Shown: positions 5,929 to 55,707 of the stretch, one piece after another
Numbering within the stretch: position 1 is the stretch's first letter
Layout of the letters: the number at the start of each line of letters is the position of its first letter
NCBI GenBank assembly: GCA_027064525.1
Contig: JAMOPJ010000046.1
Coordinates: 1 to 64,000, forward strand
Length of the DNA stretch: 64,000 bases
From: Archaeoglobaceae archaeon
GTDB lineage: Archaea; Halobacteriota; Archaeoglobi; Archaeoglobales; Archaeoglobaceae
Reading direction: 5' to 3'
Program-made: the position numbers and the translations under genes
The notes under the pieces: model-generated
Database searches by the model: none
What the model was told of the DNA's origin: nothing
The model's input: only the letters and a program-made list of their open reading frames with translations

Positions 5929-6866
5929 AGATCCAACGCTCTCCTAACGTTTTTTAACAACGCAACAGCACATTCCTGCGAAGGAAAGCTGAAGAGACCA
6001 CAATCTGGCCCGATGTAGGCTATCAGGTCACCAAACCTATCGTATGCTCTCTCTATTCTGCTCTTTATGACTTCCGGACTCTCTACCTCGTTGATTGCCT
6101 TTATGATGAGTTCTTCGCTCTCCCAAGCGTTCACGTTGTGTTTCTGATTGAATTCCGCAATTATTCCATCTATGTCGCTTCTCGCAATTCCAACTCTAAG
6201 CTTTTTGTCGTGGGATTCCAAATCTTGAGGATCTACGAAATCCAAAGCTGAAGGATCCTTAGCAGATTCGATGCCTATAACGTCTATCGTATCGATGTCG
6301 AGTATCCTTTCGTAGAAAAGAGGAGCGTGCAGATGAATCTGAACATCAACGTCGAACTTCAAAGGCTCGAAAGCCAGCTTCAGCTGGTCATCCGTGGGCT
6401 GCAAATCCGGATTTAATCCCAAACTCGGTTCATCTATGCTGACGCATTCAACGTTCGGATACTTTAAAGCATTCTCAACGAATCTCGCAACAGACTTCGC
6501 AAGGTTTTCAAGAACGTCATCAAAAATTACAGTTCCAAGTTCCTTAACGTAAAGCTCGAAAGGACCGGTCACACAAACTCTAACAGCATCTGCACCAATC
6601 TTTTCAACGTATTCAAGCTCAATAATCTTAGCTTCGCTCTTCATAACGAGGTATCCGTCTTCCTGATAATTGCGAATGATACGCATGAACTGTTCGACCA
6701 TATCTTGAAATTGAGGATACGTGGGGCATTCAACACCGGCGTTGATCTTCATCAAAAAAGCCCGCTGAACAATCTCCTCATACTCCTTGCTGTAAAGGTT
6801 TTGCATAACCCAATCTCTCGTTATTCCTTTCGGCAGTGGGAAGCTACCTATATCGTCGAAGATCAT
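5916..6866 (-). CDS. MetE-type methyltransferase core (archaeal methionine synthase)
   Basis: The 316-aa protein matches the C-terminal catalytic half of cobalamin-independent methionine synthase. It opens with DDIGSFPLP, has a substrate-side VSIDEPSLG, a helix-barrel region VDVQIHLHAPLFYERILD, and ends with YIGPDCGLFSFPSQECAVALLKNV, the GPDCG zinc/thiol site. Archaeal enzymes of this short type lack the N-terminal folate-binding half of MetE and are thought to take the methyl group from methylcobalamin or a corrinoid protein. The gene precedes MarC on the same strand and faces away from the ribosomal protein gene uS15. Methyl donor and acceptor are not proven by the sequence. Confidence 0.82.
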   Translation of the reverse strand: MIFDDIGSFPLPKGITRDWVMQNLYSKEYEEIVQRAFLMKINAGVECPTYPQFQDMVEQFMRIIRNYQEDGYLVMKSEAKIIELEYVEKIGADAVRVCVTGPFELYVKELGTVIFDDVLENLAKSVARFVENALKYPNVECVSIDEPSLGLNPDLQPTDDQLKLAFEPLKFDVDVQIHLHAPLFYERILDIDTIDVIGIESAKDPSALDFVDPQDLESHDKKLRVGIARSDIDGIIAEFNQKHNVNAWESEELIIKAINEVESPEVIKSRIERAYDRFGDLIAYIGPDCGLFSFPSQECAVALLKNVRRALDLWTT

Positions 6867-6953
6867 CGGCGGAATTGATCACGCTTTGAATAAAGGTTTA
6901 TCGATCGCAACTTATTTAAGTGGGAGTAGAGATCTTGGGAGAAGGTGATGCTC

Positions 6954-7415
6954 ATGGCGAGAATGCATGCGAGAAGGAGGGGCAGATCAGGATCAAAGAA
7001 GGTGTATAGGGATCATCCCCCAGAATGGGTTGAGATGAAGCCTGAAGAAGTTGAGAAGCTGGTAGTGGAACTCTACAAGGAAGGTTACGAGCCGAGCATG
7101 ATTGGAATGATTCTCAGAGATCGCTATGGCATTCCTTCGGTTAGGCAAGTTACTGGAAAGAAGCTTGTGAAGATTCTGAAGGAGCACGGAATCGATATAG
7201 GTTTGCCTGAAGACCTGAAGTCCCTGATTAAGAAAGCTATAAGGCTCAGGAAGCACTTGGAAGTTCACAAGAAGGACAAGCACAACATGAGAGGTCTGCA
7301 GTTGATCGAAGCTAAGATCTGGAGGCTATCGAACTACTACAAGGAGAAGGGAGTTTTGCCGGCTGACTGGAAATACGATCCCAAGAAGCTTGAAATCGAA
7401 TTGTTCAAATCGTAA
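6954..7415 (+). CDS. rps15: 30S ribosomal protein uS15
   Basis: I choose ATG 6954 ([20 protein letters not shown]) because archaeal/eukaryal uS15 begins this way and GGTGAT lies four bases upstream; earlier GTG/ATG codons at 6945/6948 fall inside that element. The protein has the archaeal N-terminal extension ([43 protein letters not shown]) followed by the universal S15 helices ([40 protein letters not shown]). The last part binds 16S rRNA helices 20-22. Length 153 aa is typical of archaea. The gene stands alone with its own promoter region. Confidence 0.97.
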
Positions 7416-7487
7416 TTATTTTTAATAAAAATTTCATAATTAGTTGAGATACAAAAAAGTTTTAAATTTTTCTTGTTAATATTTGAC

Positions 7488-47574: not shown

Positions 47575-47613
47575 CAAAGTTGCTTGGTACTGAAGGTTAT
47601 AAGTTCAACGCAA

Positions 47614-48000
47614 TTAAGATTTTTTAAAAACAAGCTTCAAAAATATTACAAAACCCCATCCCATGAGCAGGAATTTGAGATTATCAAAAAGTGTTTTGTC
47701 AGAATTTATTGGAAAGATTACTCCAGTTATCGATGTAATGTGGTAAAGCACGATGAATGATGCTATGGACATTAAAGCAGCGAGTGATGTTACCAGGATA
47801 TCAGATCTGATGCATCGTTTGAGGTAGCGGACGCTTACAATTATCGGAATGGCAAATATCACAACGACTCCCATCACCGCTCTCACAAATGCTTCGGGAA
47901 GAGAGTATCCAGATTTTAACAGGACAATTGTACCTAAAAATGAAAAAAATAACAACATCAACACAACTACAACTCCGCCAAATTTAGATTCGTATTTCAT
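47614..48000 (-). CDS. Four-helix membrane protein coupled to Cys-rich secreted protein
   Basis: ATG 48000 overlaps the stop of the secreted-protein gene (ATGA). The 128-aa protein starts MKYESKFGGVVVVLMLLFFS and has four hydrophobic segments (VVVVLMLLFFSFLGTIVLL, AVMGVVVIFAIPIIVSV, DILVTSLAALMSIASFIVLY, LKFLLMGWGFVIFLKLVF), with short loops. Membrane proteins of this size and position are often immunity proteins for secreted peptides. I do not recognise the family by sequence. The downstream mobA lies 40 bases away with an AT-rich gap, so transcription may end here. Confidence 0.7.
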   Translation of the reverse strand: MKYESKFGGVVVVLMLLFFSFLGTIVLLKSGYSLPEAFVRAVMGVVVIFAIPIIVSVRYLKRCIRSDILVTSLAALMSIASFIVLYHITSITGVIFPINSDKTLFDNLKFLLMGWGFVIFLKLVFKKS

Positions 48001-48704
48001 GGTGTAATTCCCCAATCCCATTCTACACATATCGTACCTAATTCAGTACAGGAGAGATAGTAGCATGATGGACAGTATAGGAATACACATGTTATACATT
48101 GAAGAGATCCTGGGCTTGTACAAGGTATTGCACACGATCCACAGCATTTAATGAAATCGTTCCAGTCAATCTCACAGCAATAATCGACACAGTATGATTG
48201 ATCTCCTTCACAGTCCGAACTACTTGAACATTCATGTTCGCAAGTATCTAACGTTCGCAATACACCATTAATACTCATCTTTTCTGTTCTTATCTTAGTA
48301 CCTTCTAAACAAAACAGATATGCTACCGTTTTTATGTTATTTACAGGCTTAGAGAACTCGTAGTATATGACTGCACATTTTCCATCTTTTAGTGGAATAC
48401 CTACCGCTAATAGCTCTACATCCTGTCCATTGATTTTAAGCTCGTGTTTAACAACCTTTGCGCTTTTATAATCTAAATTATCTAATCTCGCAATATTTCT
48501 TATATCATTGCTGGTTATTACCTTTGATTGTAGCTGAGCAATTGGCATCTTTATCTCACTACTATTTACAAATTTCGCAATTAATAGCGGGCATATACAA
48601 GATTTTGGATGTTCCTGTGATTTCAGACTATATGTCGCTGAAACAATTGCACTAGCTATTACCAACACTAATAATATATGCAGTAAACTCTTCCATAATT
48701 TCAT
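47997..48704 (-). CDS. Secreted protein with 16-cysteine C-terminal domain (halocin C8-like in layout)
   Basis: It opens with a signal peptide MKLWKSLLHILLVLVIASAIVSA, then a ~120-residue mixed domain (residues 35-150), then a C-terminal domain of ~72 residues with 16 cysteines (155-226), dense in CC and CxxC pairs (CVDYCCEIDWNDF, CCGSCAIPC, CITCVFLYCPSC). Precursors of halocin C8 share this plan: Tat/Sec-like signal, an N-terminal part that acts as immunity protein and a Cys-rich C-terminal peptide released as the antimicrobial. The homology is inferred, not confirmed. A GGTGAT site precedes the ATG. Upstream lies the repeat with TTCGAA sites. Confidence 0.68.
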   Translation of the reverse strand: MKLWKSLLHILLVLVIASAIVSATYSLKSQEHPKSCICPLLIAKFVNSSEIKMPIAQLQSKVITSNDIRNIARLDNLDYKSAKVVKHELKINGQDVELLAVGIPLKDGKCAVIYYEFSKPVNNIKTVAYLFCLEGTKIRTEKMSINGVLRTLDTCEHECSSSSDCEGDQSYCVDYCCEIDWNDFIKCCGSCAIPCTSPGSLQCITCVFLYCPSCYYLSCTELGTICVEWDWGITP

Positions 48705-48890
48705 TCTATCACCCTACTATCTTACGCATTCAAAATATAAAAAATTATCGTTTTAGTAATTTTAAATATTTGATAAATAGATAACTATTCGAATATAATC
48801 GAACATTTGATAATTTTTGAACAGTTCGAATGCATTTGAATGATTAACTAACCTTAAAATATTCGAAAAATTTCGAACATTCAAATTATA
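48702..48890 (-). promoter_or_regulatory. Duplicated promoter/operator region A with TTCGAA sites
   Basis: A TATA-like element (minus strand TTTTTTATATTTT, about 48732-48744) precedes the secreted-protein gene, and GGTGATAG lies just before its ATG. Further out lie four perfect TTCGAA sites at 48788, 48825, 48862 and 48872, two of the intervals being 37 bp. Several near-matches (ATTTGAA, ATTCAAA) lie between. The same arrangement recurs at 55129-55305. The region also lies upstream of the divergent UbiA-like gene and may control both. Confidence 0.65.
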
Positions 48891-48941
48891 TTCAAACGAA
48901 ATAAGTAAATAATTCATAAACGTTTTGAAAGTGTATAAGAT

Positions 48942-49616
48942 GTGAGGGCGCTTAAGGCATCGATGTTCGTCAGTATTTCCGCATTCTTCAGAGTCCTATT
49001 CGCCCAATGTCTATCCAACACCATCGATCTGAAAGCTTGCATAACGTTTTCATTGACAGCTTTATCTGTTTACGTCTTGGATAGAAGCTTCGACTTTAAC
49101 TCTTACAAGGAAATAGCTATAGCAATAGCATTTGCTTTAGCCGCCTCACTAATATACCCATGCTGTTCTTACATACCACCTCTCGCTCTGTTCATAGGTT
49201 TCATGTACTCCAAAGGAATAAGAGGCCTCAGACTGAAGAGAGGTTACGGCATAAAGAACATAGTAACGGCCACAACATGGGGAACAATCATAGCATTTTT
49301 CTCTAAAATCGATGTACATATCATAGCATTTTTCACGCTGAAGAGCTTCATAATAACAGTCCTTAACGACATTAAAGACTTAAAGGATGATCTTGAAATG
49401 GGTATCAAGACGATACCAGCGATCCTTGGCAACAGAACTTTGCAATTTCTGATAGTTGTAAATATTATATTACACTTAATCGTTCTTACGTGGTTGCCGT
49501 TGCCGTGCTATCTACTGAGCTTACTAATCAGCTTTTACGCTATAAAGAAGATAAATCCCAAACTTGCCCAAGCTGAATTTTTACCTCAATCGATTCTGCT
49601 AATATCTACCGAATGA
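48942..49616 (+). CDS. UbiA-family-like membrane prenyltransferase, 224 aa
   Basis: The protein has about seven hydrophobic segments. The two aspartate-rich features expected of UbiA are partly present: LDRSFDFNSY after the second helix and FIITVLNDIKDLKDDLEMGIKTIPAILGNRT, where NDIKD...D...G...TIPxxLG is the family's second motif. UbiA proteins move prenyl chains onto aromatic or lipid acceptors; this short one (the usual is ~280 aa) could be a lipid or quinone enzyme. The start is GTG 48942, placed on the far side of the TTCGAA repeat, so it is divergently expressed with the Cys-rich gene. The 3' end overlaps the HTH gene by 31 bases. Confidence 0.75.
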   Translation: MRALKASMFVSISAFFRVLFAQCLSNTIDLKACITFSLTALSVYVLDRSFDFNSYKEIAIAIAFALAASLIYPCCSYIPPLALFIGFMYSKGIRGLRLKRGYGIKNIVTATTWGTIIAFFSKIDVHIIAFFTLKSFIITVLNDIKDLKDDLEMGIKTIPAILGNRTLQFLIVVNIILHLIVLTWLPLPCYLLSLLISFYAIKKINPKLAQAEFLPQSILLISTE

Positions 49617-50362
49617 GCCATGTAGTGTTCAAACAACTTTAACCCCCATTTCACAGCTTCGTCGGTTTTACATATGAGCACCTTCAGCGAATCGTATGTT
49701 CCGTCTAAATCGTACAAACTCAAAGTAAATCCCTTTTCAGCTACGATAAACGCAAGTTTGGCGTTTTTACAGACGAAAAGTTTCCCATACTTTAAGAACT
49801 CCAACAGTTGTTCTTTATATTTCCTCTTAACCCTATTAAATATATCCTCAGTTAGGATTATCTTAACATCCCGTTCTTTTGCGAGATTTTTAAATAATTC
49901 TGGAAAATCGCGGTGATATATTGACGATAAACCGTAAACCCATACAGAGCTCTTCACGATATTTATCCATTCGGGGTGTAGCTCGTACGGATTGTCCTTA
50001 ACCAAAACCCTACATCCCCGTAACATGTAAATTTCGTTAAGCAAATTCTTTGGTATTGGGAAGAGGTCATGATTTCTAAAAAAATCTCCAGCGTTCATCA
50101 AAACATCTTTAAGCTTTAGAAGTTCGACAATTCTATCTTTAACGATTATCCCTAGTTCCGTCGTCTCGTAGTACGTGTTTTTACCCTTTCTACTCTTTCT
50201 AATCAATCCCAAGTCGATTAGAGGTTTCATTTGGAAGCTTAAAGTTGATTTAGCCTTATTTAAGTTTTCAGATAACTCTGATAGTGTTTTCGGATTGTCT
50301 GCAAGTAATTCTAAGATTTTAAGCTTAAGATGTGAGGTTCCAAAAATTTCAAGAAACTTCAT
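49586..50362 (-). CDS. Archaeal HTH regulator with C-terminal DUF1724-like domain
   Basis: The 258-aa protein has an N-terminal winged-helix of the ArsR type (SHLKLKILELLADNPKTLSELSENLNKAKSTLSFQMKPLIDLGLIRKSRKGKNTYYETTELG) at residues ~10-80. The long C-terminal domain ends with KLAFIVAEKGFTLSLYDLDGTYDSLKVLICKTDEAVKWGLKLFEHY, resembling the DUF1724 domain of archaeal regulators, thought to sense a ligand. It is a candidate regulator of the neighbouring secreted-protein genes, as its start faces hisD and its end meets the UbiA-like gene. The binding site is unknown. Confidence 0.85.
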   Translation of the reverse strand: MKFLEIFGTSHLKLKILELLADNPKTLSELSENLNKAKSTLSFQMKPLIDLGLIRKSRKGKNTYYETTELGIIVKDRIVELLKLKDVLMNAGDFFRNHDLFPIPKNLLNEIYMLRGCRVLVKDNPYELHPEWINIVKSSVWVYGLSSIYHRDFPELFKNLAKERDVKIILTEDIFNRVKRKYKEQLLEFLKYGKLFVCKNAKLAFIVAEKGFTLSLYDLDGTYDSLKVLICKTDEAVKWGLKLFEHYMAHSVDISRID

Positions 50363-50514
50363 AAATTTTTAAGATTACAATCATGATTTAAATTTTTCTA
50401 AACTTATCACCTCAAATTTTTATAATTGTATAAAAAATTTTTAGAATTTTTTTATTTTGAAGTGATCAGATGTATAAGCAAAGGTCTATATGACCTCCCA
50501 ACACCCAAGTTTCA

Positions 50515-54893: not shown

Positions 54894-55131
54894 GTTGGAA
54901 CCACCTTGTGTGCATTGGCACCAAACCAACTTCCAAATGCCGTATGATGTACATCGGTATCCCAAGTATTGTACAGCAGGATATACTTTGAATTCGTGTT
55001 GATGTCTACAGCAATTTCTTAGCTACTTCCTTCGCTTCAGCTGTACTCACTTGCTCTTTAGCCATTCCCGCTACACTACTGAGCACAGCTATTACTAACA
55101 ATACACTTAGTATATTTTTCCACAGTTTCAT
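54890..55131 (-). pseudogene. Frameshifted small secreted protein, second unit
   Basis: ATG 55131 encodes MKLWKNILSVLLVIAVLSSV and on to VSTAEAKEVAKKLL, ending at TAG 55006-55008. Its signal peptide is close to that of the Cys-rich protein at 47997. From ~55016 another frame continues IAVDINTNSKYILLYNTWDTDVHHTAFG...KVVPT and stops with a TGA that overlaps the ATG of the membrane gene (ATGA). A single-base indel would restore a ~81-residue secreted protein. Downstream coupling is retained, so the frameshift looks recent. Confidence 0.65.
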
Positions 55132-55305
55132 CCTATCACCTTACTATCTTACGCATTCAAAATATAAAAAATTATCGTTTGAATAATTTTTAATGTTTAA
55201 TGAATAGATAAGCATTCAAAAAACTTCGAACATTTAGCAATATCTAAAATAGTTCGAATCCATTCAAACATTTAACCAACATTAGAATATTCGAAAATTT
55301 TTGAA
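55129..55305 (-). promoter_or_regulatory. Duplicated promoter/operator region B with TTCGAA sites
   Basis: Over ~180 bp this region aligns with region A at 48702-48890: the same GGTGATAGNATG start context, the same TATA-like TTTTTTATATTTT and TTCGAA sites at 55225, 55253 and 55290, the last two 37 bp apart as in A. The immediate leader of 30-40 bp is almost identical in the two copies. The conserved spacing favours co-operative regulator binding. Confidence 0.65.
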
Positions 55306-55308
55306 TCA

Positions 55309-55707
55309 TTAATCATCCGCAAAACTATTGCTCAGCTTTACAATCTTGCTCATGCCGTTTTCGTATCTGATTATGATTCCCCGTTTTTCCAAATCTTGCA
55401 AGGTTCTCGAAAGTGTAGATTTCGGTATACCCGTTCTCGCCGCCAACTCCGCTTGAGTCATCTCGCCGTGCTTGAGAAGAATTTCAACGATCTTTCGCTC
55501 GTTCTCTTTCAGAGATTTCAGCACGATTTTATGCGAATCCGATGGGTTGGACTTGAACAAATCGTCCACGAAATCTTTTACGACTCCAAAAATTAGAAGG
55601 AAAATCGTAAGGAATAGTAGTCCCTTAATTAAGTCGTCTATCATCAGACCTAAGATGTAAGCTCCCACCGCTATAAGAATACACTCTCTACTCACTTCGA
55701 TTTTCAT
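55309..55707 (-). CDS. Membrane-anchored winged-helix regulator, 132 aa
   Basis: Start ATG 55707 (MKIEVSRECILIAVGAYILG) has GGTGATC upstream. Two membrane helices (ECILIAVGAYILGLMI and LIKGLLFLTIFLLIFGVVKDFV) are followed by a MarR/TrmB-like winged helix (SLKENERKIVEILLKHGEMTQAELAARTGIPKSTLSRTLQDLEKRGIIIRYENGMSKIVKL). Membrane-tethered HTH proteins of this architecture occur in archaea and are thought to sense membrane or external signals. It lies just beyond the TTCGAA repeat of the second unit and upstream of another secreted-protein gene, so it is the best local candidate for the regulator. Confidence 0.83.
   Translation of the reverse strand: MKIEVSRECILIAVGAYILGLMIDDLIKGLLFLTIFLLIFGVVKDFVDDLFKSNPSDSHKIVLKSLKENERKIVEILLKHGEMTQAELAARTGIPKSTLSRTLQDLEKRGIIIRYENGMSKIVKLSNSFADD

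What the first reader, a model, noticed from the sequence alone, without database searches (positions are those of the whole stretch)
47614..48704. Cys-rich secreted protein coupled to a small membrane protein: candidate archaeal peptide-toxin/immunity pair
Seen: a signal peptide, a ~120-residue middle domain and a terminal domain with 16 cysteines in 72 residues, followed by an ATGA-coupled four-helix membrane protein. Known: halocin C8 is made as a precursor with an N-terminal immunity part and a Cys-rich C-terminal peptide. Inference: this is an Archaeoglobales counterpart, which would extend antimicrobial peptides to a hyperthermophile sulfate reducer.
Basis: partly seen in the sequence, partly recalled or inferred. 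Interest (0 to 1): 0.78.

Follow-up and report, generated by a model that had tools for sequence, protein, structure and literature searches.

The report
Mobile archaeal bacteriocin-like peptide gene cassette
A heat-loving archaeon carries an inserted four-gene block encoding a secreted, cysteine-packed peptide precursor related to the haloarchaeal antibiotic halocin C8, plus a small membrane protein that is its likely immunity factor; the cysteine-rich "warhead" is a different, unnamed kind.

Summary
The precursor's middle domain is homologous, by profile-profile comparison, to a domain in 23 other archaeal precursors with mostly Cys-rich C-termini (Archaeoglobi, Methanosarcina-like, alkane/methane-oxidiser-like, haloarchaea-like). 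Several carry the NCBIfam halocin C8 domain (TIGR04449), and the domain family matches the N-terminal part of haloarchaeal halocin C8 precursors. The window's own Cys-rich domain is not a halocin C8 domain (no TIGR04449 hit, chance-level profile score); it groups with a second Cys-rich type. 15 of 25 such precursors are followed directly by a small multi-TM ORF. The pair sits in a 2.87-kb insertion, with a UbiA prenyltransferase and a FilR1-type regulator, between mobA and hisD; two congeners have the empty site. The regulator-UbiA module recurs across Archaeoglobi beside variable secreted proteins, with tandem palindromic operators. Best reading: a mobile archaeocin-type cassette, precursor plus dedicated membrane immunity protein, with an exchanged toxin head. 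Antimicrobial activity is inferred, not shown. TIGR04449 proteins already occur in 6 of 59 Archaeoglobi genomes, so this is a new variant of a known kind.

The parts
47997..48704 (-). Cys-rich secreted precursor, 235 aa
   Evidence: SD-like GGGTGAT before the ATG
48630..48704 (-). Sec-type signal peptide (residues 1-25), of a sequence type shared with many other exported Archaeoglobi proteins
   Evidence: helix 2-25 in model; signal-only matches
48249..48590 (-). HalI-like middle domain (residues 39-152), helices then antiparallel strands
   Evidence: profile-profile; model pLDDT about 75
48027..48242 (-). Cys-rich C-terminal domain, 16 Cys in residues 155-226 (candidate mature peptide)
47614..48000 (-). 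Small four-TM protein, ATGA-coupled (candidate immunity protein)
48705..48941 (.). Divergent promoter with three TTCGAAnnnnTTCGAA-type palindromes (48788, 48825, 48862; 37-bp spacing)
48942..49616 (+). UbiA-family prenyltransferase
   Evidence: PF01040 E 3e-9, above cut-off
49586..50362 (-). FilR1-type winged-helix regulator, tail-to-tail with UbiA
   Evidence: PF08350 E 6e-29
47611..50476 (.). Whole insertion; empty site (mobA next to hisD) in congeners G035 and G038

Best explanation
A mobile archaeocin-type cassette. The precursor is exported through Sec, its Cys-rich tail is folded with disulfides outside the cell and released from the HalI-like middle domain by a protease, and it then acts on the membrane of competing archaea lacking the cassette. 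The co-translated four-TM protein protects the producer, and the HalI-like domain keeps the tail inactive or adds immunity as HalI does for halocin C8. The FilR1 regulator controls the divergent promoter through tandem palindromes; UbiA is a conserved accessory, perhaps altering membrane lipids. Shown: gene structure, homologies, insertion, recurrent neighbourhood, operators as sequence. Inferred: disulfides, cleavage, target, killing, immunity, regulation, UbiA role.
For: Middle domain vs 23 independent precursor domains: hhalign E 1.3e-5, 0 of 150 column shuffles as good (0 of 300). The same domain type sits in front of the halocin C8 domain (TIGR04449 at or near cut-off) in G002, G044, G195, G230, G305. 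That family vs haloarchaeal halocin C8 precursor N-domains: E 5.8e-6. 15 of 25 precursors followed by a small multi-TM ORF vs 6 of 37 background pairs. Thiol/disulfide genes near relatives: LolA-thioredoxin fusion, DsbD-thioredoxin. Four-gene insertion with empty site. The membrane protein has no clear relative in 59 class genomes, as expected of a toxin-specific immunity protein. Decayed paralogue plus TM gene on contig C22 of the same genome.
Against: The window clade's domain alone does not reach significance with an HMM search and only weakly matches haloarchaeal HalI directly (2 of 80 shuffles as good); the link is transitive. The Cys-rich domain is unlike halocin C8. The structure model is poor for the tail (pLDDT below 50) and gave no fold match. 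I know of no activity data for any relative outside haloarchaea.
Confidence: 0.66

Rival explanations
1. The secreted Cys-rich peptide is a signalling peptide (pheromone): the FilR1-regulated cassette senses it through the four-TM protein, and UbiA or the HalI-like domain processes or modifies it.
For: A regulator with operator arrays is part of the cassette; the cassette is self-contained.
Against: Tail length and Cys number vary greatly between relatives, and the membrane proteins carry no sensor or signalling domain; relatives carry the halocin C8 domain.
Confidence: 0.12
2. The pair is a cell-surface metal-binding or redox protein and its membrane anchor.
For: 16 Cys could bind metal; LolA-thioredoxin and DsbD-like genes lie near some relatives.
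Against: No family or fold match to metal or redox proteins; presence/absence as an insertion and fast divergence do not suit housekeeping redox proteins; the domain-sharing relatives carry the halocin C8 domain.
Confidence: 0.12
3. It is a defence (antiviral or abortive) module rather than an offensive one: the exported peptide with its membrane partner damages the host's own membrane on infection.
For: Accessory insertion with its own regulator.
Against: Signal peptide and tail point outwards; no defence neighbours seen around it in the window. The PADLOC library was not searched.
Confidence: 0.06

Closest known systems
Halocin C8 precursor ProC8 (HalI + HalC8), haloarchaea
   Same: One gene encodes an export signal, an N-terminal domain and a Cys-rich C-terminal peptide (production and immunity from one gene: Sun et al. 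2005, as cited in PMC3831642). The N-domain family that the window protein joins also matches haloarchaeal halocin C8 precursors.
   Different: Window tail has 16 Cys and no halocin C8 domain; no Tat motif; a separate co-translated four-TM gene; UbiA in the cassette.
TIGR04449 halocin C8-like domain proteins of Archaeoglobi and Methanosarcinales-type genomes (G001, G002, G044, G049, G195, G230)
   Same: G002, G044, G195 and G230 share the middle domain, and most have a downstream small TM gene.
   Different: Different C-terminal domain; some (G001, G006, G049) carry another N-domain type.
Archaeoglobus sp. UBA230 precursor (G003:C28:23661-24359)
   Same: Full-length homologue, 38% identity, same Cys tail, membrane ORF starting one base after its stop, FilR1 regulator upstream.
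   Different: No adjacent intact UbiA; three small TM ORFs in a row, in a larger island with Zn-dependent phospholipase C-like genes.

Membership tests
Halocin C8 family (NCBIfam TIGR04449) | C-terminal domain matching TIGR04449 above cut-off | tested here: not met
   0 hits at E 10; own genome none; profile score at chance, 52 of 120 shuffles as good
Halocin C8 family (NCBIfam TIGR04449) | N-terminal HalI-type domain in the same polypeptide | tested here: met
   E 1.3e-5 to 23 relatives, several with TIGR04449 tails; those to haloarchaeal N-domains E 5.8e-6; direct window-HalI comparison weak, so met only transitively
Halocin C8 family (NCBIfam TIGR04449) | Tat-type export signal (as in haloarchaea) | tested here: not met
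   No twin arginine in residues 1-25; Archaeoglobi members with TIGR04449 also use Sec-like signals
Halocin C8 family (NCBIfam TIGR04449) | Released, active antimicrobial peptide | not testable with these tools
   needs mass spectrometry and growth assays
HalI-like-domain Cys-rich precursors (this work) | signal peptide + HalI-like domain + Cys-rich tail | tested here: met
HalI-like-domain Cys-rich precursors (this work) | small multi-TM gene directly downstream | tested here: met
   four TM, ATGA coupling; 15 of 25 in the set
FilR1-UbiA module | PF08350 regulator adjacent to PF01040 protein | tested here: met
   window; eight further loci have FilR1 next to the UbiA homologue, some UbiA genes truncated

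The most novel reading that the evidence does not exclude
Archaea of the phylum share a polymorphic archaeocin system: one HalI-like pro-domain carries interchangeable, unrelated Cys-rich toxin heads, each with its own membrane immunity gene, moved as self-contained cassettes with a FilR1 regulator and a UbiA prenyltransferase that takes part in immunity or peptide modification.
Probability: 0.3. Interest if true: 0.8.

Novelty: new variant of a known kind. Interest (0 to 1): 0.6.

Why it matters
To my knowledge almost all tested archaeal peptide antibiotics come from haloarchaea and Sulfolobales. A defined 2.9-kb cassette in a hyperthermophile family, with sequenced congeners that have the empty site, gives natural producer and candidate target strains. 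It also suggests that the halocin C8 immunity-type domain is a general carrier for many Cys-rich peptides, which would make unannotated archaeal peptide antibiotics findable by the carrier rather than by the toxin.

Tried and rejected
Direct family searches of both proteins (Pfam, NCBIfam): nothing above cut-off. A first genome-contig scan with the single sequence: no relative. An HMM search test of the middle domain outside its clade: not significant, replaced by profile-profile tests. Halocin C8 identity of the tail: rejected. Fold search of the AlphaFold2 model and sequence search of the PDB: no match. Plasmid or viral origin: no match. Structured RNA: none. Signal-peptide-only matches were discounted as evidence of relationship. 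In the HalI comparison one of 80 shuffles gave an abnormal score of 129, apparently a degenerate alignment; it is counted as one exceedance in that control.

Full report
Observation. The two ORFs exist as described: 47997..48704 (-), 235 aa, and an ATGA-coupled 47614..48000 (-), 128 aa. Cys residues 155-226 number 16; the runner-up ORF in the window reaches 9 in the same length. The small protein has four hydropathy peaks. Neither protein matches Pfam or NCBIfam above cut-off.

Homologues. In 59 class genomes one clear full-length homologue appears (G003, E 2e-44, 38%), identified through as Archaeoglobus sp. UBA230. It has the same Cys-rich tail, a membrane ORF starting one base after its stop, and an orphan copy of the tail 8 kb away that is 83% identical. 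A third member of the clade (G021) lacks a recognisable signal in the ORF called. NCBIfam's halocin C8 domain TIGR04449 is above cut-off in 6 of 59 Archaeoglobi genomes but not in the window's genome.

Middle domain. G003's homologue matches the halocin-C8-domain protein of G044 over its length (E 4e-5, signal peptide included). To exclude signal peptide and Cys effects I compared only the middle domains. Window clade (3 sequences) vs 8 others: hhalign score 31.4 against shuffles 11.4 +/- 2.2, 0 of 300. Against 23 independently gathered members: E 1.3e-5, score 33.7 against 10.4 +/- 1.9, 0 of 150, alignment colinear over 89 columns and ending just before the Cys-rich tail. HMM scoring of the single sequences is at the edge (rank 2 and 4 among 6000 shuffles; not significant). 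Members of this domain family in G002, G044, G195, G230 and G305 end in the halocin C8 domain (22-28.5 bits, cut-off 24; G305 20.3). The family profile matches the N-terminal part of haloarchaeal TIGR04449 precursors (E 5.8e-6; 79 of 80 shuffles lower, one degenerate outlier). One of those precursors (L140) ends in what I recall from memory as the canonical halocin C8 peptide. Window clade vs those directly: weak (2 of 80). I therefore call the domain HalI-like, by a transitive argument.

Cys-rich tail. It does not resemble the halocin C8 domain beyond chance (52 of 120 shuffles as good) but does resemble the tails of G003b, G017, G176 and G138 (E 0.003, 0 of 120), a small sample. So one carrier domain is combined with at least two kinds of Cys-rich tail. 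A census with the middle domain alone found matches in 29 of 394 phylum genomes (the query alignment included the window); most of the ORFs read out end in Cys-rich tails, a few do not.

Small membrane gene. Of 25 precursors, 15 are followed within 300 bases on the same strand (all of these within 65) by an ORF of at most 270 aa with two or more TM peaks, against 6 of 37 adjacent pairs in the window (members are not all independent, and the window background includes the pair itself). The window's membrane protein itself has no convincing relative in the class.

Cassette. In congeners G035 and G038 mobA and hisD are neighbours; in the window 47611-50476 lies between them at the same point, flanks 78-80% identical. 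It holds exactly the membrane gene, the precursor, UbiA (PF01040) and a FilR1-type regulator (PF08350), with no recognisable recombinase. G+C is 0.36-0.40 in the genes against 0.43 for the window. FilR1 next to the UbiA homologue recurs in eight further loci tested in Archaeoglobi genomes and, in tandem orientation, in Met33H. Beside it lie variable secreted proteins: Cys-rich precursors (G017, Met33H), or Cys-free ones followed by small TM genes (G025 with a Gly/Ala-rich tail, G009). Several UbiA copies are truncated.

Operators. The divergent intergenic region has three palindromes at 37-bp spacing. The corresponding regions of G003, G017, G009 and G110 have tandem repeats, mostly palindromic, of 18-20 bp period, at or above the largest of 200 shuffles; G025 is not above shuffles. 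These are sequence observations; binding is untested.

Structure. AlphaFold2 with a five-sequence alignment gave a moderately confident middle domain (helices followed by antiparallel strands) and an unresolved tail; no fold match.

Known background. That halocin C8 production and immunity come from one gene is stated in PMC3831642. That the halocin C8 family was computationally extended to diverse archaea by Makarova et al. 2019 (cited in PMC12352652) is from memory, as that paper is not held. Hence the category: a new variant of a known kind, with a different toxin head and cassette context.

Noticed in passing
window 55090-55310: A second copy (79% identical over 218 bp) of the precursor's promoter, palindrome array (55215, 55253, 55290) and signal-peptide start, followed by an ORF stopped after 41 codons; fragments downstream look like a decayed secreted protein, perhaps a papain/C39-like peptidase (not tested).
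   Followed up: partly
G000:C22 (L058 about 6830-7440): A decayed relative of the precursor in the same genome, with several in-frame stops, followed by a six-TM gene (L058 7578-8189).
   Followed up: partly
many Archaeoglobi loci (e.g. L095:5001-6161, L059:9181-10257): The first about 29 residues are a conserved, sequence-specific signal peptide shared with many other exported proteins, including Zn-dependent phospholipase C-like ones: possibly a dedicated export or sorting class.
   Followed up: no
L006:12407-12991: Seven register copies of a 20-bp-period palindromic repeat (TTTAGnnGGnAACTAAA type) between the FilR1 regulator and the precursor in Archaeoglobus sp. UBA230.
   Followed up: partly
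L083:6383-7663: Beside FilR1-UbiA in G025: a Cys-free secreted protein with a Gly/Ala-rich, glycine-zipper-like tail plus a four-TM gene; looks like another bacteriocin-type pair.
   Followed up: no
L060:5656-6837: A 393-aa secreted protein of congener G038 with few Cys matches the HalI-like domain profile (E 1e-11): the carrier domain also occurs on larger proteins.
   Followed up: no
L021:4465-6910: In G001 two Cys-rich precursors (23 and 10 Cys) flank a six-TM gene; they share a different N-domain type, and the smaller one has the strongest TIGR04449 match in the class (62.6 bits).
   Followed up: no
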